Source: Candidatus Zhuqueibacterota bacterium | Lineage (GTDB): Bacteria; Zhuqueibacterota; Zhuqueibacteria; Zhuqueibacterales; Geothermadaptataceae | DNA: 41,977 nucleotides | Assembly (NCBI GenBank): GCA_030950365.1 | Contig: JAUZRQ010000093.1 | Span: 1-41,977 of the forward strand | Reading direction: 5' to 3' | In this document: positions 23,777-32,996 of the stretch, piece by piece | Position numbering within the stretch: the stretch's first letter is position 1 | Layout of the letters: every line of letters begins with the position of its first letter | Program-made: the position numbers and the translations under genes | Notes under the pieces: generated by a model | Seen by the model: only the letters and a program-made list of their open reading frames with translations | Database searches by the model: none | What the model was told of the DNA's origin: nothing

Positions 23777-26368
23777 ATGGAATCGCGGTTATTGCATATT
23801 TGGCCGAAAGTCCGCCGCGGAATCGCTTTGTTCGGAGGGATTCTGCTGCTCGCGGCTTTGGCCGCCAGCGCGCCAGCGCGGCCGCAGAACGCAGATACGC
23901 TGCAGTGGCGCGCCATTTCGCCCACGCGCAGTGTGGCGTCACTCTCCGGAACCTGGCAGATGCAGTCGAAACAAGTGCAGGGAACGCAACCTGTTACCGT
24001 GCCCGGCTTTCTGACCGGAATGGATAATGCGCATTTTTTTAGGGATTTTTATCTGCCTGCGGATTTATCGAGCAAAGCATTCAAATTGCGTGCCGAAGGC
24101 ATTCATTACGATTGCAAAATCTGGATCAATGACCATTTCGTCGGAGGGCATCGTGGCGGCTACAGTCGGTTTGAAATGTTTCTCAATCCCTCCTGGCTTC
24201 AGTTTGGTGCCAGCAATCGCATTCGCATTGAAGCCGACAGGCGGTTGAATGCCTTTTATTCGCTGCCGCCCAAGCATCGGCCGTTTGGTACACCAAATCC
24301 GCTGGGCATTCACCGCGATTTGTCCCTGGAAGCCATGCCTCCATTGATCATCGATGATGTGCAGGCGGCGTATTCGTTTTCGCCTGATTATCAGCAGGCC
24401 GAGATGGTGCTGCAGGTGGGTGTTCGCCAGTTCAAAGATGATGCGGCGAGTTCGGGCGAACCGCAGGAGTGGTCGATTTTCGCCGAGCTGCGCACCACGG
24501 GGCCGCAAAGCCGGGTGGTGGCCATCAGTCAGCGGGTGCCGTTCCGAATGCCGCATGTGACTCTGAAAATCGAGGACATTCGGCTGGCTATCAAAGCGCC
24601 ACGGCTGTGGAGCCCGGAAAACCCGGAACTGTACCAGTTGACCGTTTTTCTTAGCGCCACCAATGCGATTGTGGACATGACGCAGTTCCGGGTGGGCCTG
24701 CGCGAGGTTGCCGTGCGCAACCATGAATTCTACCTCAACGGCCGACCGTTTATTGTAAAAGCGGTGGATTGGATCGAGAATCTGTCCGGACTGAGCGGAG
24801 ATTCGCTTGCTGCAAGAATCGACCGCACACTCAGCGCCGCAAAAGCACTGGGCGCTAACGCGATCCGCGTGCTCGGCCGGCAGGCGCATCCGGCGTTGGT
24901 AGAGCGCTGTTCGGAACGAGGGATATTCGTTCTGGAAGAATTACCAGTGTATTACACCAATGCACGGCAGCTCGCCCGGGAACAGGTGTTGAAAATGGCG
25001 CTGAACCAGCTTGAGGAGATGATTCAGCGCGACAAATTCCAGCCATCGGTGTTGGCCTGGGGGCTCGGCGGCTATTTGCAGGAAAACGATCCGCGCACTG
25101 AGCAGTTTGTCGATCGCATGATCGTGAGGGCTCGGCAATTGGATGCCCGTCCGCTATATCTGGTCACCCGCCATGTCGGTAACACACCGGTGAATCTGGC
25201 CACCGATTTCCTGTTGTTTGACGTATTCGAGAAATCAGCCGAGCAGGTGCGCGCGTTCGATCGCGATGCGCGGCCGGTTTTGCCGGTGATCGGCTATATG
25301 ATCAATCTGGATCTGGCCAAACACACGCAAATGGATGAAGCGCGCACCTTGATCGAAATGGAAGAGGTGCAAGCGGAACGACTACAGCAGGCGCTGGAAT
25401 TTTTGACCACGTCCTGGCCAAACTACGCCGGCCATGTGGTGCATGCCCTGTACGACTGGCAGAGCGAGAGGCCTTCGCTGCTCATCAGCCGCTTTAAGCC
25501 GCCGTATGTGTGTCCCGCCGGTCTGATTGCGATGGATAGCCGCCGGCGCATCGGCTATCAGATGGTCGCCGCCTATCATTTGCAAGACCGGCCGCCACCC
25601 ATCTCACCGACGCCGAATCTGGCCATTCGCTCTCCGGTGTTCACCGTGGTTGGCGTGGCGATCATTCTGATTTTTCTGTTTTTCCTGCGTCGCGACAAAA
25701 GGCTGCGCGGCCACCTGCGCCGGATTTTCGTGCATCCACATGGCTTTTACATGGATATTCGCGAAAACCGTAAGGTGCCGGCGTTTTTGACGTTGCTGCT
25801 GGGTATTCTCGAGGGCGCCATCTGGGGCTGCATCGTGGCGGGGCTGATCTGGTCGCTACGTAATCAGCTCATTTTTAATGAAATTGTTGATTTGCTGACG
25901 CCGTCGGTGGCCGCTAAAGAAATGATCGTCTGGCTGGCCTGGCATCCGGGCGTGCTCATTGCGGTGGTGGCGGCAACGTTTCTGCTACTGATGACACTGC
26001 TGGCGATTGCCCTGCGCGTGATCTCCATGTTCCGTCGGGAATCGCTGCCCATGATCCAGTATATGACGTTAATGTTTTGGACCGGCAGCAATTACATCGT
26101 GCTGTCGCCCATTGCGCCGATTTATTACCGCCTGGTGGAGCAGCCCGGCTTTTTCAACATTGGCCTGGCGATCGTTGGGCTGTTTTTTATCTGGCACATG
26201 CTACGCCTTTACCGGGGCGTGCGGGTGTTGTACCTGATGCCGGCGCCGCGGGCCGCGCTGATTCTGCTGGTGCTGCTGGTGCTCATTTTTGGCAGCCTGA
26301 TCTGGTATTTCCAGCAATCCCAGGCGGTTCTGGATTATTTCGCTTATTACCGGGATGTATTGAATTAA
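23777..26368 (+). CDS. GH2-like glycosidase homologue with lost catalytic acids, fused to a multi-pass membrane domain
   Basis: 863 residues. An N-terminal signal or anchor segment (about 15-33) is followed by a GH2 sugar-binding jelly-roll (about 55-190), an immunoglobulin-like domain (about 195-310) and a TIM-barrel-like domain (about 315-600). The C-terminal 250 residues hold about six membrane segments (about 620-636, 668-692, 718-748, 765-782, 792-810, 826-845), reminiscent of Yip1-type domains. In active GH2 enzymes the acid/base sits in WxxGNE; here it is WGLGGY (428-433), Tyr in place of Glu. Around 499-507, where PxxxSEYG-type sequence carries the nucleophile Glu, this protein reads RPVLPVIGY. 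It is therefore probably a non-catalytic sugar-binding or sensing membrane protein. ATG 23777 has GAGG 8 nt upstream. smc follows 19 bp later. Confidence 0.8.
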   Translation: MESRLLHIWPKVRRGIALFGGILLLAALAASAPARPQNADTLQWRAISPTRSVASLSGTWQMQSKQVQGTQPVTVPGFLTGMDNAHFFRDFYLPADLSSKAFKLRAEGIHYDCKIWINDHFVGGHRGGYSRFEMFLNPSWLQFGASNRIRIEADRRLNAFYSLPPKHRPFGTPNPLGIHRDLSLEAMPPLIIDDVQAAYSFSPDYQQAEMVLQVGVRQFKDDAASSGEPQEWSIFAELRTTGPQSRVVAISQRVPFRMPHVTLKIEDIRLAIKAPRLWSPENPELYQLTVFLSATNAIVDMTQFRVGLREVAVRNHEFYLNGRPFIVKAVDWIENLSGLSGDSLAARIDRTLSAAKALGANAIRVLGRQAHPALVERCSERGIFVLEELPVYYTNARQLAREQVLKMALNQLEEMIQRDKFQPSVLAWGLGGYLQENDPRTEQFVDRMIVRARQLDARPLYLVTRHVGNTPVNLATDFLLFDVFEKSAEQVRAFDRDARPVLPVIGYMINLDLAKHTQMDEARTLIEMEEVQAERLQQALEFLTTSWPNYAGHVVHALYDWQSERPSLLISRFKPPYVCPAGLIAMDSRRRIGYQMVAAYHLQDRPPPISPTPNLAIRSPVFTVVGVAIILIFLFFLRRDKRLRGHLRRIFVHPHGFYMDIRENRKVPAFLTLLLGILEGAIWGCIVAGLIWSLRNQLIFNEIVDLLTPSVAAKEMIVWLAWHPGVLIAVVAATFLLLMTLLAIALRVISMFRRESLPMIQYMTLMFWTGSNYIVLSPIAPIYYRLVEQPGFFNIGLAIVGLFFIWHMLRLYRGVRVLYLMPAPRAALILLVLLVLIFGSLIWYFQQSQAVLDYFAYYRDVLN

Positions 26369-26387: not shown

Positions 26388-29300
26388 GTGTACCTTTCAC
26401 GGCTGGAACTTTTCGGTTTTAAGTCGTTTGCGCAAAAAACGGAGATTCAATTTCACGATGGCATCACCGCCATTGTCGGCCCAAACGGTTGCGGCAAGAG
26501 CAACATCGTGGACGCCATCCGCTGGGTGCTCGGCGAGCAGAAGGCCGGCGTGCTGCGCTCTGATTCCATGCAGAATGTGATTTTCAACGGCACGCGCAAT
26601 CATAAACCGCTGGGTATGGCGGAAGTATCCATTACCATTCAAAATAACCGCAACGTCCTCCCTATCGAATATTCCGAGGTGGTCATTACCCGCCGGCTGT
26701 TCCGCAGCGGCGAAAGCCAGTACCTGCTCAACAATTCTGTGTGCCGGTTGAAGGACATCCTCGACCTGTTCATGGACACCGGTGTTGGCCCCAACGCTTA
26801 TTCGGTGATCGAGCTGAACATGGTGGAAAAGATTCTCAACGGCCGCCCGGAAGAACGGCGGCAGATTTTCGAAGAGGCGGCCGGGGTGACCAAGTACAAA
26901 CTGCGCCGGCGCGCGGCTTTCCGCAAGCTGGAGGCCACGGAGCAGGACCTAATCCGGCTGTCGGATATCATCAGCGAGGTGGAGAAGACCGTCAACAGTC
27001 TGCGGCGGCAGGTGCTGAAAGCCCGGCGCTACAAAGACATGAGCGAGGAACTGCGCCAGCTCGAGCTGGATTATTCGGCCTATCATCTGGCCAAAATTCA
27101 CGAAGAGCTTGGGCCGTTGCAGGAGAATTTCAAGCAGATGCGCAAGCAGCGTGAAGAAGTGGCCAGCCAGCTCGCCGGCGAAGAGGCGCAGATCGAAGAA
27201 TGGCAGGTGCAGTTGCTGGAGATCGAGCGCCAGTTGAACGCGCGCCGCAACGATCTCAATGCCAACAGCCAGCGGGTGCAGCAAAAAGAAGAAGAAATTC
27301 TGGTGAGCCAGGAGCGGGTGAAGGCGGCTGAGCAGGCCCGGATGCGCGCCCGCCGGGATATCGAGGAGCTGCAGCAGCGCAAGGAAACCCTGGATGAGGA
27401 AAAGGAGCAGTTGCATCAAAATTTAGCCGAGGCCGAGCAAAAGCTGAAAGAGGTGGAGGCGGAGTTTCAAAAGGCCCAGGCCGCGCTGGATGAGGTCAAG
27501 CAGCGGTATACCGCCAGGCGGCAGGAAGGCCAGAAGCTGGAAGAAGCGCGCCTGCAGCGGCTGGAGTCCATTGGCGATGCGCAAAAGGAACACGAAAAAC
27601 TGATCACGCAGATTGAATACATCGACCGGCAACTGGAGAGCTTTGCGGAAGAGGCGCAAAACCTGCAGGAGCGGCAGAACCGCACGGAAGACAAAATCCG
27701 TGAGCTCGAAACGCAGAAGCAAAACCTGCAGGATGCCCTGTTCGAAATCGACGAATCGCGGGCGGTCATCGAACGGGACATCGAGCGCATTCGCAACGAT
27801 ATCGAGGCACAGCGCACTCGGGTGCTGGACGTCAAGGGCCAGATCCAATCGCGCCGCGATCGCGCCAACCTGCTGCGCAAATTCGTAGAGACGTACGAGG
27901 ATTATCCCGAGGGCGTTCGGCATTTGCTGCTGGAAAAGCGTCTTGGCGATGATTGCCACGGCACGGTCGGCGATTTGATCGGCGTGGATGATGCCTACCG
28001 CAAGGCCATCGAGGTGGCGCTGGGCGAGGCTGCTGTGGCGCTGGTGGTGCAGGGCTCGGAGCAGGCCGTGCAAGCCATCGAATTGCTGAAAACCGAAGGC
28101 AAAGGCGCGGTGACCTTCCTGCCGCTGGAGCGCATCCGGCAAAACGGCGAGGCCGATCGGCCGTTGCTGGAGGCCGTGCAATCGCATCCTGGATTTGTGG
28201 GCCGCGCCGCCGATCTGGTCACGGTGTCCGAGGCGTTCCGTCCGGTGTTGCAAACGTTGCTGCGTCACGTGTTTGTTGCCCGCGATCTGAACGCGGCGAT
28301 GGACATCGCCAGTCGGCTTCCCGACAGCCATGTGGCGGTGGTTACCCTCAATGGTGAGGTGGCCTACTCGTGGGGTGCCATCCGCGGCGGCGACAGCGAG
28401 GAAGCCGAGGCCAGCCTGGTCGGGCGCAAGGCCATCATCGAGTCGCTGGAAAACGAAATTACCGATCTCGAAAACGATCTGACCGAGCTGCAAGATCAGT
28501 TGCGCAGCAATGAGCAGCGACTGAAGGAACTGCAAGAGCAAAACCGCGCGCTTGAAGGAGAAAAACAGAAGAAAGCGCGACTCCTGCAGGACGCCGAGGT
28601 GGCGCTGGGCGAAGCGCGCGTGGAAAAGCAGCGTTCCGAAGAACGGCTCGAGGCCATCCGCGGCGAAAGCGATATCCTGAGGGAACAAAAAGAAGAATTT
28701 GCCGCCAAACTCGATGAACTGCAGCCGCTGTTTGAGCAGTTTGAAGCGAAAAAGCAGGAAATCGAGGCCGATTATGCGGCGTACCGGAACGATCTCGAGG
28801 CACTGGAAACCGAATTGCGCCAGGCCGAAGATCGGGTGCAGAAAATGCATCTGGAGTTGGCCACCCGCAAAGCCGAGATGCGCAACGATCAGCAGACGCT
28901 GGAGCGAGTGCTGAAAACCGAGCGTGAAATCGAGGAAACCATCAGGCGGCGTGAGGAAGAGATCCGCAACGCCGAGGAGATCATCGGGACCCTGAATGAG
29001 CGCATCGCCGAATTGCGCGACCTGCTGCAGGACGATTTCGCCGAGCGCAAGGAGCTGGAAGAGGTGATCGCGGAAATCGAGCGCGAATACCGGCAGCGCA
29101 AGGAGCATCTTGAGGAACGCGACAAGGCGCTACGCAAGGTGCGCGTCGAACGCGACGAGATTTCCGAGCGCGTGCACGAGATGGAGCTGCGCATTTCGAA
29201 ACTGCAGATGGATGAAACGAATCTGCTCGATCACATCCGCGAAGCGTACGAAGTCAATCTGAAAGAGCACCCGGCGCCGGAGCAGATCGATGTGGAGTGG

Positions 29301-29978
29301 GCCGGCCAGCGGATCAATGAGCTGAAACAAAAAATTCGCACCATGGGCCCTGTGAACATGCTGGCATTGAAGGATTATGAAACCGAAAAAGAACGGCTCG
29401 ACTTTTTACTGTCGCAGAAAGACGATTTGCTGAAAGCGGAAGAAAACCTCAAGGAAACCATCCGGGTCATCAACAACACGGCCTACGAGCGGTTCAGTAG
29501 CGTGTTCTCCAAAGTGCGCGAGAATTTTATCCAGGTGTTCAAGAGTTTCTTTGAAAACGGTAGCGCTGATCTGCGCATGGCTGGAGACGATCCGCTCGAA
29601 GCGGAAATCGTGATTGAGGCCAATCCCAAAGGTAAGAAAGTCGGTTCGCTGGCACTGCTCTCCGGCGGTGAAAAGGCGTTGACCGCCATTTCGTTGCTGT
29701 TCGCGCTGTATCTGGTCAAACCCAGCCCGTTTTGCATCCTCGATGAGGTGGATGCACCGCTCGACGATGCCAACATTCGGCGATTCACCGGCGCGCTGAA
29801 AAAATTCTCCGACCGCACCCAGTTCATCGTGGTGACGCACAACAAGCTCACCATGAGCGCGGCCAATCAGCTTTACGGCATCACCATGGAAGAACCCGGC
29901 ATTTCCAAAGTGGTGTCGGTGAAATTCGAGGGGCAGGCCGAAGAGACACAGGAAAAACCCGAGGGGGCGAATATTTGA
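26388..29978 (+). CDS. smc: Chromosome segregation protein SMC
   Basis: 1196 residues, full length. N-terminal Walker A is GPNGCGKS (31-38) after [12 protein letters not shown]. Two long coiled coils (about 170-500 and 670-1010) flank the hinge (about 510-660, starting near [17 protein letters not shown]). The C-terminal head has the ABC signature LSGGEKAL and Walker [19 protein letters not shown] extrudes DNA loops and helps chromosome segregation with ScpA and ScpB, which are not in the window. Start is GTG 26388, backed by GGGAGGG upstream. The GH2-like gene ends 19 bp before it, so they may be co-transcribed. An AT-rich restriction-modification pair follows. Confidence 0.97.
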
Positions 29979-30009: not shown

Positions 30010-30056
30010 TAGTAGGCAATATTAGGTTTCATGAATCCTAAACGTTCGCTTTGAAA

Positions 30057-31019
30057 ATGAGCAAGCTATCTATAGCTTCGCAATTCGATCCAGAGGCTGA
30101 CGCAATTTTGTTTGAAGGGGATACACTGCAATTGTTGTCTCAAATACCGTCCGAATTCGTTCAACTGGTTGTAACGTCCCCCCCCTATAATCTTAAAAAA
30201 GAGTATGAGACCAAATTAAATCTTGAAGAATATTTAAGACAACAAAAGGAAGTTATCGCGCAGTGTGTCCGTGTCCTGAAGCCAACGGGCAGTATTTGCT
30301 GGCAAGTTGGCAATTATGTGGACAATGGAGAGATTATTCCTCTGGATATTATTCTTTATCCAATTTTCAGAGAATTTGGATTGCAATTGCGCAATCGCAT
30401 TGTTTGGCATTTCGGTCATGGGCTACATGCTACCAAACGGTTTTCTGGCCGCTATGAAGTGATTCTCTGGTTTACAAAAGGAAAGGAATATGTCTTTAAT
30501 TTGGATGCTGTGCGTGTACCCCAAAAATATCCTAATAAAAAGCATTTTAAAGGCCCGAACAAAGGCAAGTTGTCAGGCCATCCATTAGGCAAAAACCCAA
30601 GTGATGTCTGGGAAATACCAAACGTCAAATCCAATCATGTGGAGAAAACCATTCATCCTTGCCAATTTCCGGTTGAGCTCATTGAAAGATTGGTTCTTGC
30701 GCTTAGCAATGAGGGGGATTGGGTATTCGATCCATTTTTAGGAGTGGGTACGACGGCGATCGCTTCGCTAATGCACAATCGTCGCGCAATCGGTTCAGAA
30801 ATCATGCATCAATATGTAGAAGTAGCAAGGGATCGACTTCAACAAGCCGAACAGGGGCTGCTAAGAATACGACCAATGGAAAGAGCCGTTTATGATCCCA
30901 ATGGAACTGGAAGATCAATTCCACCCAAATTTGTCCAAATTAAGTCTCCTACGAAGCAATTAGAACTTTTTAAGCGGTCAGATCAGATGGAGTTCTTAAA
31001 TCAAGAGGGCAACCAATAG
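30057..31019 (+). CDS. Site-specific DNA methyltransferase of a Type II system (beta class, probably N4-cytosine)
   Basis: 320 residues. The catalytic motif IV TSPPYN (40-45) comes before the S-adenosylmethionine motif I DPFLGVGTT (225-233), the beta-class order. SPPY is common in N4-methylcytosine enzymes, though some N6-adenine enzymes also have it. The middle (about 120-200, basic, GKLSGHPLGKNPSDVWEIP) is family-typical. Its TAG is immediately followed by the ATG of the nuclease gene. It protects the host sites from the BglII-type nuclease; M.BglII-type enzymes are, from memory, N4-cytosine methylases. ATG 30057 is preferred to the TTG at 30051. The gene is clearly more AT-rich than smc, which suggests transfer. 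Confidence 0.92.
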   Translation: MSKLSIASQFDPEADAILFEGDTLQLLSQIPSEFVQLVVTSPPYNLKKEYETKLNLEEYLRQQKEVIAQCVRVLKPTGSICWQVGNYVDNGEIIPLDIILYPIFREFGLQLRNRIVWHFGHGLHATKRFSGRYEVILWFTKGKEYVFNLDAVRVPQKYPNKKHFKGPNKGKLSGHPLGKNPSDVWEIPNVKSNHVEKTIHPCQFPVELIERLVLALSNEGDWVFDPFLGVGTTAIASLMHNRRAIGSEIMHQYVEVARDRLQQAEQGLLRIRPMERAVYDPNGTGRSIPPKFVQIKSPTKQLELFKRSDQMEFLNQEGNQ

Positions 31020-31565
31020 ATGAAAATTGTCTATGAATATTCTCATTTGGGTGGGGCTGAAATTTTATCCGTTCGATATCCTGAGCATGAGAAGGAAATT
31101 TATGAAATTATAGAGCACGTCACAGCCCAAAAGACAAAGATCAGCGAAGAAAAATCCATGATGGGAAGAAAGTTGTATTCCCCCAAAGACCTTAATATGC
31201 AATTCAAAACATTGTTTACTGAGCGCGGATACCAGGAATTGAAGGATCGCTATACCATTACAATACCAAATAGTGAAATACAAATAACTGGAGCGTTTAA
31301 GCAGATTGATTTTGTGAAAGACCGGGTGTTAGTTGAAGTGCAATTCGGAAAATATGCATTCATGTTTTATGACATGGCCAAATTCCAGTATTTTTATAAT
31401 GAAAATAAAGCAGAGGTCGGTGTAGAGATTGTCCCCTGCCATGCCTTGCATAAAAATATGTCAACCGGCGTATCGTATGGTGAACAACTTGTGTATGACA
31501 TCGAACGATTAAAACGGCATTTCCCTGCCGTCCCAGTTAAAATTATTCTAATCGATATTGATTAA
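31020..31565 (+). CDS. Type II restriction endonuclease, BglII/BstYI-like
   Basis: 181 residues. The core is QIDFVKDRVLVEVQFGKY, with Asp97, Glu106 and Gln108. The D-x8-E-x-Q spacing equals that of the BglII active site as I remember it (Asp84, Glu93, Gln95). The following YDMAKFQYFYNEN helix is also family-like. By homology the target would be AGATCT or the related RGATCY. It starts directly after the methyltransferase stop, so both come from one transcript and the methylase is made first. No controller (C) protein gene is seen. AT-rich composition marks it as acquired. Specificity is an inference. Confidence 0.85.
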   Translation: MKIVYEYSHLGGAEILSVRYPEHEKEIYEIIEHVTAQKTKISEEKSMMGRKLYSPKDLNMQFKTLFTERGYQELKDRYTITIPNSEIQITGAFKQIDFVKDRVLVEVQFGKYAFMFYDMAKFQYFYNENKAEVGVEIVPCHALHKNMSTGVSYGEQLVYDIERLKRHFPAVPVKIILIDID

Positions 31566-31580
31566 ATTGAGCATGTAGTG

Positions 31581-32996
31581 ATGAACGTATTTAATCCGAA
31601 AATATATTACAAATTGCTTTTGATTATTTTTTGTTTGAATTTGTTTTTGCACACGCCGTTAACTTCCCAAACCCTCACCCCGCCTCCGAAAAAAATCGGC
31701 TACTATGTGGACATGGCGCAGTTTCGTGTCAATGATTCCATTAGTCTGGCGGAGATCTATTTCGCCATTCCACGCAATCAGTTCACCTTTGCCGCCAGCG
31801 ATTCGGCGCTAAGAGCAGATCTCAACCTGGCGATCGATATTTACAAAAACGACCAGCACGTGCTGCGGCGCGCCTGGCAGGCCACCAGCTATGCCAGCGA
31901 TGTTCAGGATGCCCGGTCCGCCAAGATGCTGTTTTCTGTGGCCAGTTTTCAAATGAAAAAAGGCGTTTATCAGATCGTCGCCTCGATTACCGATGCGCAT
32001 AATCAGGTAAAAGGCGAGGCGGCGTTTGAGTTGCAAATAGCGCCCTATGTGGGTGAAAGTTTGATGCTGAGCGACCTCGAGCTGGCCTCGGAAATCAAAC
32101 GCGACCGTATGAAATCCGTGTACTACAAAAACGGTTATCGTATTATTCCCAACCCCAGCGGCATTTATGGCGACGGCCTGCCGATTCTGATGGTGTATTC
32201 GGAAATATACAATCTGAAATACCCTTCGGACACCACCTACACCGTCCATTACCGGGTTTACGATTCGTCCGGCAATGTGGTGAAGGACCTGCCGCCGAAA
32301 GTACGCAAGATTACGGGCTCGTCTCTGGTCGAGGTCGGGGGCTTTAATGTCATTTCGCTGTTTTCGGGCACGTATGTGCTGGAGATCGAGGTGAAGGACA
32401 ACGGCACCGGACTGGTAGCGCGGCGCACGAAAAAGTTTTTCATCTACCGGCAGAAAGATCAGACCGCCGAGGTGATGCCGGATATCGGCAAAGCGCGCAT
32501 GGAGGCATTGAGCTATTTTTACCGGGATATGTCCGAAAAGCAAATGGATGAGGAATTCGATGCCGCGCGCTGGATCGCCACGAAAGAAGAAAAACAAATT
32601 TTTAAGTCACTGGACGAAACCGGCAAACGCGAGTTTCTGGCCCAGTTCTGGCAAAAGCGCGATACCGATACCACCACCGTGCGCAATGAGTTCCGGGAAG
32701 AATATCTGGAGCGGGCGCGCTATGCCCGGGATAATTTCAGTGGCTTCAAACCAGGCTGGCGCACGGATCGCGGTCGGGTGTTGCTGACCTATGGCAGGCC
32801 GGACGAAATCGAGCGGTTTCCCAGTAACAACAATACCCGCGCCTACGAAATCTGGCATTATTATCATCTCGAAGGCGGCATCAAATTCATTTTTGTGGAT
32901 ATTCGCGGCTGGGGCGAGTTTAGTCTGGTTCACTCCACTGCGCGTGGCGAGGTGCGGGACCCGGACTGGACCCGATGGCTGCGGCCGGTGCGATGA
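31581..32996 (+). CDS. GWxTD domain-containing secreted protein
   Basis: 471 residues. A signal peptide (about 9-30, ending near HTPLTSQ) precedes beta-rich domains (about 40-290), an acidic helical linker and the C-terminal GWxTD domain. The signature here is PGWRTDRGRVLLTYGRPDEIE, followed by YEIWHYY. This family is confined, as far as I know, to FCB-group and related phyla, and its function is unknown. A linker helix contains RDMSEKQMDEEFDAARWIAT, as in relatives. ATG 31581 is preferred to the overlapping GTG at 31578. It heads a three-gene operon: the cupin gene starts 9 bp after its stop and the acetyltransferase gene overlaps the cupin. Confidence 0.88.
   Translation: MNVFNPKIYYKLLLIIFCLNLFLHTPLTSQTLTPPPKKIGYYVDMAQFRVNDSISLAEIYFAIPRNQFTFAASDSALRADLNLAIDIYKNDQHVLRRAWQATSYASDVQDARSAKMLFSVASFQMKKGVYQIVASITDAHNQVKGEAAFELQIAPYVGESLMLSDLELASEIKRDRMKSVYYKNGYRIIPNPSGIYGDGLPILMVYSEIYNLKYPSDTTYTVHYRVYDSSGNVVKDLPPKVRKITGSSLVEVGGFNVISLFSGTYVLEIEVKDNGTGLVARRTKKFFIYRQKDQTAEVMPDIGKARMEALSYFYRDMSEKQMDEEFDAARWIATKEEKQIFKSLDETGKREFLAQFWQKRDTDTTTVRNEFREEYLERARYARDNFSGFKPGWRTDRGRVLLTYGRPDEIERFPSNNNTRAYEIWHYYHLEGGIKFIFVDIRGWGEFSLVHSTARGEVRDPDWTRWLRPVR

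What the first reader, a model, noticed from the sequence alone, without database searches (positions are those of the whole stretch)
23777..26368. GH2-like protein with neither catalytic glutamate, fused to a six-pass membrane domain
The fold order is GH2 (sugar-binding, immunoglobulin-like, barrel), but the acid/base site reads WGLGGY and the nucleophile region reads RPVLPVIGY. A C-terminal membrane domain of about 250 residues is appended. A membrane protein with an external dead glycosidase looks like a sugar sensor, a transporter accessory or a scaffold. It lies 19 bp upstream of smc, an odd partner.
Basis: partly seen in the sequence, partly recalled or inferred. Interest (0 to 1): 0.6.

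Follow-up and report, generated by a model that had tools for sequence, protein, structure and literature searches.

The report
Dead glycosidase fused to membrane domain
This gene encodes a sugar-cutting enzyme that has lost both its cutting residues and is permanently fused to a six-pass membrane domain; it is kept across a whole uncultured bacterial phylum (KSB1) and in scattered others, usually just before the chromosome gene smc, and it most likely acts as an envelope scaffold or assembly factor rather than as an enzyme.

Summary
Window 23777-26368 encodes an 863-aa protein: signal peptide, GH2 sugar-binding, Ig-like and TIM-barrel domains, then six hydrophobic segments. The positions of both GH2 catalytic glutamates are occupied by other residues. 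The gene ends 19 bp before smc, same strand. This is neither a pseudogene nor an artefact. At least 50 of 82 held genomes of the phylum (candidate division KSB1) carry the same fusion, usually once per genome, and 11 genomes of other phyla carry it too. Of 43 full-length KSB1 orthologues and 7 from other phyla, none keeps both glutamates. Active-site columns vary about as much as the rest of the barrel, while fold-defining residues and the membrane half are conserved. The membrane half was never found without the GH2 half except where contigs end or frames break. Ten of 34 full-length members match Pfam Yip1. In 35 of 45 informative KSB1 genomes smc follows on the same strand, as in three families of other phyla. 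But four near-complete genomes have the fusion and no SMC. I propose an extracytoplasmic pseudo-glycosidase used as a binding scaffold, held by a Yip1-like membrane domain. A sugar sensor using the canonical pocket, and a direct SMC partnership, are less likely. The function itself is inference.

The parts
23777..26368 (+). whole gene, 863 aa: extracytoplasmic dead GH2 plus six-TM Yip1-like membrane domain
23777..23878 (+). signal peptide / N-terminal hydrophobic segment (residues 1-34, hydrophobic 16-34)
   Evidence: hydropathy; cleavage inferred from ASAPA motif, not tested
23906..24235 (+). GH2 N-terminal sugar-binding (jelly-roll) domain, residues 44-153
   Evidence: PF02837, E=1.2e-8
24350..24703 (+). 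GH2 immunoglobulin-like domain, residues 192-309
   Evidence: PF00703, E=1.1e-10
24707..25591 (+). GH2 TIM barrel (residues 311-605) lacking both catalytic Glu
   Evidence: PF02836 E=4.2e-10 over 311-465; profile alignment to 6ncy to residue ~595
25073..25075 (+). Y433, aligned to acid/base E413 of E. coli UidA (motif WGLGGY)
25286..25291 (+). V504/I505, aligned to nucleophile E504 of UidA (motif RPVLPVIGY)
25631..25687 (+). TM1 (residues 619-637), linking ectodomain to the membrane domain
25688..25792 (+). positively charged, presumably cytoplasmic loop (residues 638-672), the most conserved region: RRDKRLRGHLRRIFVHPHGFYMDIRENRKVP
   Evidence: entropy 1.76 against 2.3-2.95 elsewhere; 8.2 K/R on average; alignment A2
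25721..26305 (+). Yip1-like domain, residues 649-843 (TM2-TM6)
   Evidence: PF04893 E=2.3e-4 for the window's membrane half, below the curated cut-off; best member 2.8e-8
26388..29978 (+). smc, 19 bp downstream; conserved neighbour, not shown to be a functional partner
   Evidence: PF02463 and PF06470; linkage

Best explanation
It is a membrane-anchored pseudo-glycosidase. A GH2 protein lost both catalytic glutamates and, judging by the variable active site, its canonical sugar site, but kept the three-domain fold on the outer face of the cytoplasmic membrane as a binding scaffold. TM1 carries the chain inside to a conserved basic loop, and five more helices form a Yip1-like domain. The most likely role is an assembly or tethering factor for an envelope complex (transport, glycan or cell-wall machinery): the ectodomain docks partners outside, the Yip1-like part docks membrane partners, as the Yip1 protein YknW does for the YknXYZ transporter. 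Shown: domain order, missing Glu pair, conserved fusion, purifying selection, smc synteny. Inferred: topology, loss of catalysis, scaffold role. Not known: the partners.
For: No member with both Glu among 43 KSB1 orthologues and 7 from other phyla; single relic Glu in L071, L087, L089 and L117. Fused members lie on one side of one 99*-supported branch (SH-aLRT, quick tree), all Glu-bearing GH2s and paralogues on the other. Active-site columns have entropy 1.7-3.5 (most 2.9-3.5) against a barrel median of 2.88; the conserved barrel columns are mostly ones that active GH2s share. Every hit of the membrane-half profile lies in a frame long enough to hold the GH2 half, unless cut by a contig end or frame break. 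Ten of 34 full-length members match Yip1 at E <= 0.01, best 2.1e-7; 16 of 36 membrane halves do, best 2.8e-8. Charge pattern puts the ectodomain outside and the Yip1 N-terminus inside, as in Yip1 proteins (PMC6682643). dN/dS about 0.13 for the ectodomain and 0.09 for the membrane half (from dN 0.251/dS 1.907 and 0.112/1.309). YknW is a Yip1 protein that modulates YknXYZ assembly (PMC4887032).
Against: No partner gene recurs right next to it except smc (and the GWxTD gene behind smc). The ectodomain changes fast (65-66% identity to its nearest relative where SMC has 92%), which fits a scaffold but also weak constraint. The Yip1 match of the window protein alone is below Pfam's cut-off. No structure could be modelled (pLDDT 35.6). 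About a third of the phylum's genomes lack the gene, so it is not essential everywhere.
Confidence: 0.45

Rival explanations
1. The Yip1-like domain is itself a channel, transporter or flippase, and the dead GH2 domain is its external receptor or gate, comparable in architecture to heteromeric amino-acid transporters with 4F2hc/rBAT ectodomains.
For: Yip1 proteins have been proposed to be channels, transporters or receptors (PMC6682643). Conserved charged or aromatic residues lie in and next to the membrane segments (R649, R665, W768, R785, R810).
Against: No function is reported for bacterial Yip1 domains in the review read (PMC6682643); no transporter gene recurs as a same-strand neighbour. 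An antiporter-like gene (assignment by eye) lies upstream, usually on the opposite strand, in about 20 loci.
Confidence: 0.2
2. Sugar or glycan sensor: the dead barrel still binds a glycan and signals through the membrane domain.
For: The GH2 sugar-binding domain and barrel folds are kept; membrane linkage places the most conserved loop in the cytoplasm.
Against: Columns aligned to UidA active-site residues (N412, E413, Y468, Y472, E504, W549, R562, N566, K568) are not conserved within the family. Binding elsewhere on the ectodomain is not excluded.
Confidence: 0.12
3. An enzyme with relocated catalytic residues or a new chemistry.
For: D560 is invariant and E388 nearly so in the barrel.
Against: Both positions are D/N or E/D in active GH2s and UidA too, so they reflect the fold. 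No acidic residue specific to this family is invariant in the barrel.
Confidence: 0.08
4. Functional partner of SMC, for instance an envelope anchor for chromosome organisation.
For: Same-strand smc within 12-2,032 bp in 35 of 45 informative KSB1 genomes, and in three families of other phyla. 19 bp gap and an RBS in the window.
Against: Four near-complete genomes with the fusion have no SMC hinge domain. Ten KSB1 genomes have the gene without smc in at least 3 kb downstream; in seven of them smc was found elsewhere. KSB1 genomes lacking the gene keep smc, with no homologue upstream. The bulk of the protein is outside the cytoplasm.
Confidence: 0.07
5. A decaying pseudogene or assembly fusion.
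For: Fast-evolving ectodomain; a few relatives with a broken frame or stop, such as G007.
Against: Dozens of independent genomes with an intact fused frame, and purifying selection.
Confidence: 0.01

Closest known systems
Glycoside hydrolase family 2 (Pfam PF02837/PF00703/PF02836; E. coli UidA, 6ncy beta-glucuronidase)
   Same: domain order, fold residues, significant profile match over the whole ectodomain
   Different: no catalytic Glu pair, active-site columns not conserved, C-terminal membrane domain
Yip1 domain (Pfam PF04893); bacterial member YknW of the YknWXYZ transporter
   Same: length, five TMs after a cytoplasmic N-terminus, near full-length profile match in many members
   Different: an extra TM and a 600-residue GH2 ectodomain in front; divergent, and the window protein scores below the curated cut-off
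4F2hc/rBAT (SLC3) pseudo-glycosidase ectodomains
   Same: a glycosidase-fold ectodomain on a membrane anchor, serving a membrane complex
   Different: alpha-amylase (GH13) family, one TM, partner is a separate SLC7 subunit; resemblance of logic only (PMC8537225, abstract only)
Glu-bearing GH2 plus ~six-TM proteins of another small phylum (L119, L147, L148)
   Same: GH2 ectodomain followed by a membrane half of about 240 aa; L119 is the nearest Glu-bearing branch in the tree
   Different: both catalytic Glu intact; membrane halves not detectably homologous by hhalign (probability 0.4%); no smc hit on the fetched stretches

Membership tests
Glycoside hydrolase family 2 (sequence family) | sugar-binding, Ig-like and TIM-barrel domains in order | tested here: met
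Glycoside hydrolase family 2 (as a working hydrolase) | acid/base Glu (UidA E413) | tested here: not met
   Y433 in the window; 1 Glu in 43 KSB1 orthologues and 1 in 7 from other phyla
Glycoside hydrolase family 2 (as a working hydrolase) | nucleophile Glu (UidA E504) | tested here: not met
   V504/I505 in the window; 2 Glu in 43 orthologues, none together with the acid/base Glu
Yip1 domain family PF04893 | profile match over its length above the curated cut-off | tested here: inconclusive
   window E=2.3e-4, 21.5 bits against cut-off 28.6, profile 2-172 of 173; other members down to 2.8e-8
Yip1 domain family PF04893 | five TMs, N-terminus cytoplasmic | tested here: met
   hydropathy and charge pattern only; topology after PMC6682643
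YknW-like transporter assembly factor | association with an ABC transporter and membrane fusion protein | tested here: not met
   no such gene recurs in the clustered neighbourhoods, from the cluster listing and reading of representatives
GH2 pseudo-glycosidase | no hydrolysis measured | not testable with these tools
   needs biochemistry

The most novel reading that the evidence does not exclude
A trans-membrane coupling device in which an external pseudo-glycosidase reads the state of the envelope and, through the Yip1-like domain and its highly conserved cytoplasmic loop, influences chromosome organisation or the cell cycle via the co-encoded SMC.
Probability: 0.05. Interest if true: 0.85.

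Novelty: new variant of a known kind. Interest (0 to 1): 0.52.

Why it matters
An enzyme fold has been kept by a phylum as an apparent non-enzyme, permanently fused to a membrane domain of the Yip1 type, for which the review read here reports no function in prokaryotes and for which I found one studied bacterial case (YknW). Automatic annotation would call these genes beta-galactosidase or glycoside hydrolase, which would inflate the predicted sugar-degrading ability of KSB1 and its relatives. The Glu-bearing GH2 plus six-TM proteins in another small phylum offer a natural comparison for asking how such an enzyme becomes a scaffold, and the conserved smc linkage gives a testable question.

Tried and rejected
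AlphaFold2 on the window protein with the one relative from the search for related loci gave pLDDT 35.6 and no usable fold; no fold search was run on it. Loci from the genome search and the fetch from genomes were not handed to the predictor because its stated rule does not list them. Profile comparison of the membrane half with that of the Glu-bearing L119 family showed no detectable homology, so common origin of the two fusions is not claimed. The careful tree did not finish; the quick one was used, and its long branches are unsure. Literature searches for a Yip1-glycosyl hydrolase fusion, for GH2 pseudoenzymes on membranes, for inactive glycoside hydrolase scaffolds and for GWxTD gave nothing relevant. 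SMC as obligate partner was considered and lowered.

Full report
Observation. ATG 23777 is preceded by a purine-rich stretch, the stop ends at 26368, and smc begins at 26388 after 19 bp that hold a GGGAGG ribosome-binding site. Pfam finds the GH2 sugar-binding, Ig-like and barrel domains above cut-off; phmmer finds GH2 enzymes of solved structure. The barrel's Pfam match stops at profile position 163 of 302, but a profile of the family aligns to 6ncy, a beta-glucuronidase, to residue ~595, through both catalytic sites.

Catalytic residues. With E. coli UidA as yardstick (E413 acid/base, E504 nucleophile, known from the literature on that enzyme; sequence), the window has Y433 and V504 (or I505 without gaps). 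Among 43 full-length KSB1 sequences (the window included) one has Glu at the first site and two at the second; among seven homologues from other phyla one has Glu at the first. None has both. Four more homologues from other phyla also lack the pair at the aligned motifs. As control, L119, L120, L121 and UidA have both. Of 14 GH2 paralogues from the window's family, 8 have Glu at the first site and 5 at the second; several are fragments or align poorly.

Is the pocket kept for binding? No sign of it. Columns aligned to UidA active-site residues have entropies of 1.7-3.5, most of them 2.9-3.5, with a barrel median of 2.88. The well conserved barrel columns (N361, G382, E388, D477, G552, D560, G582, R591) are mostly ones that active GH2s also share. 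So what is preserved is the fold, not the sugar site. Binding elsewhere on the ectodomain is not excluded.

Membrane half. Hydropathy averaged over the family gives six C-terminal segments. The loop after TM1 carries on average eight K/R, which by the positive-inside rule puts the ectodomain outside. That loop is the most conserved part of the protein (entropy 1.76). The five following segments match Pfam Yip1 nearly end to end: window membrane half E=2.3e-4, below Pfam's cut-off; 16 of 36 members at E <= 0.01, best 2.8e-8. The topology agrees with that of Yip1 proteins, N-terminus cytoplasmic and five TMs (PMC6682643). I regard it as a divergent Yip1 domain with moderate confidence. Bacterial Yip1 proteins are little studied; YknW modulates assembly of the YknXYZ transporter (PMC4887032).

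Distribution. The window's phylum is candidate division KSB1, judged from the title of the nearest relative. With the single protein as query, 50 of 82 held genomes of the phylum match at E <= 1e-30. The membrane-half profile, run on 388 genomes, rang in 63: 52 of the phylum and 11 of other phyla. All hits lie in frames long enough for the GH2 half, except where contigs end or frames break. Hence the fusion is not an assembly artefact, and the halves are not separate genes in relatives. On the quick tree all fused members lie on one side of one branch (99*) and all Glu-bearing GH2s and paralogues on the other. Between the window and the same-genus genome G006, dN/dS is about 0.13 for the ectodomain and 0.09 for the membrane half; SMC has about 0.06 (dS high, so rough).

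Neighbourhood. smc follows on the same strand in 35 KSB1 genomes, at 12-2,032 bp. Ten further genomes with at least 3 kb of downstream sequence have no smc there (counted by me from the listing); in seven of those smc lies elsewhere. smc also follows the gene in G082, G135, G154 and G295, three families of other phyla. Behind smc a GWxTD-domain gene is common (cluster in 22 loci). Upstream genes vary. In the window the smc-GWxTD pair is split by a BglII-type restriction-modification pair. Four near-complete genomes (G088, G161, G276, G302) carry the fusion but have no SMC hinge domain, while the search finds it in 10 of 14 control genomes and in the other four carriers tested. In KSB1 genomes without the gene, smc is present with no homologue upstream, so the gene has been lost or was never there. 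The linkage is therefore old and conserved, but not obligatory.

A parallel. In another small phylum all three held genomes (G121, G266, G388) have a GH2 with both Glu intact, fused to a membrane half of about 240 residues with five or six hydrophobic segments. L119 branches nearest to the dead family on the quick tree. The two membrane halves are not detectably homologous, so this is either deep divergence or a second fusion. It is a lead for how the dead family arose, not evidence of ancestry.

Mechanism. Best reading: an extracytoplasmic pseudo-glycosidase that serves as scaffold or docking module, tied to the membrane by a Yip1-like domain that assembles or tethers an envelope complex. The architecture, the missing residues, the selection and the synteny are shown; the function is inferred from these and from YknW. 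Rivals in order: transporter or channel with a receptor ectodomain, sugar sensor, altered enzyme, SMC partner.

Novelty. No paper found in the held library describes a GH2-Yip1 fusion. The kind, a membrane-tethered dead glycosidase, has known examples elsewhere, such as 4F2hc and rBAT (PMC8537225, abstract only), so I call this a new variant of a known kind.

Noticed in passing
window 30051-31565: A BglII-type restriction-modification pair (N6_N4_Mtase PF01555 and Endonuc-BglII PF09195) sits between smc and the GWxTD-domain gene; in relatives smc is usually followed directly by the GWxTD gene, so it looks like an insertion.
   Followed up: partly
L119 6092-8626, L147 1471-4092, L148 967-3588: GH2 proteins with both catalytic Glu intact and a C-terminal membrane half of about 240 aa, in all three held genomes of another small phylum.
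   Followed up: partly
window 31578-32996: GWxTD-domain protein (PF20094) downstream of smc; its homologues recur in 22 of the compared loci, mostly right behind smc. No paper with this name was found in the library.
   Followed up: no
L132, L137, L145 upstream of smc: In KSB1 genomes without the fusion gene, proteins resembling (by eye) the ~680-aa uncharacterised protein found upstream of the fusion in L083-L088 lie upstream of smc with a different gene in between.
   Followed up: partly
G088, G161, G276, G302: Four genomes of 94-100% completeness in which no SMC hinge domain was found.
   Followed up: no
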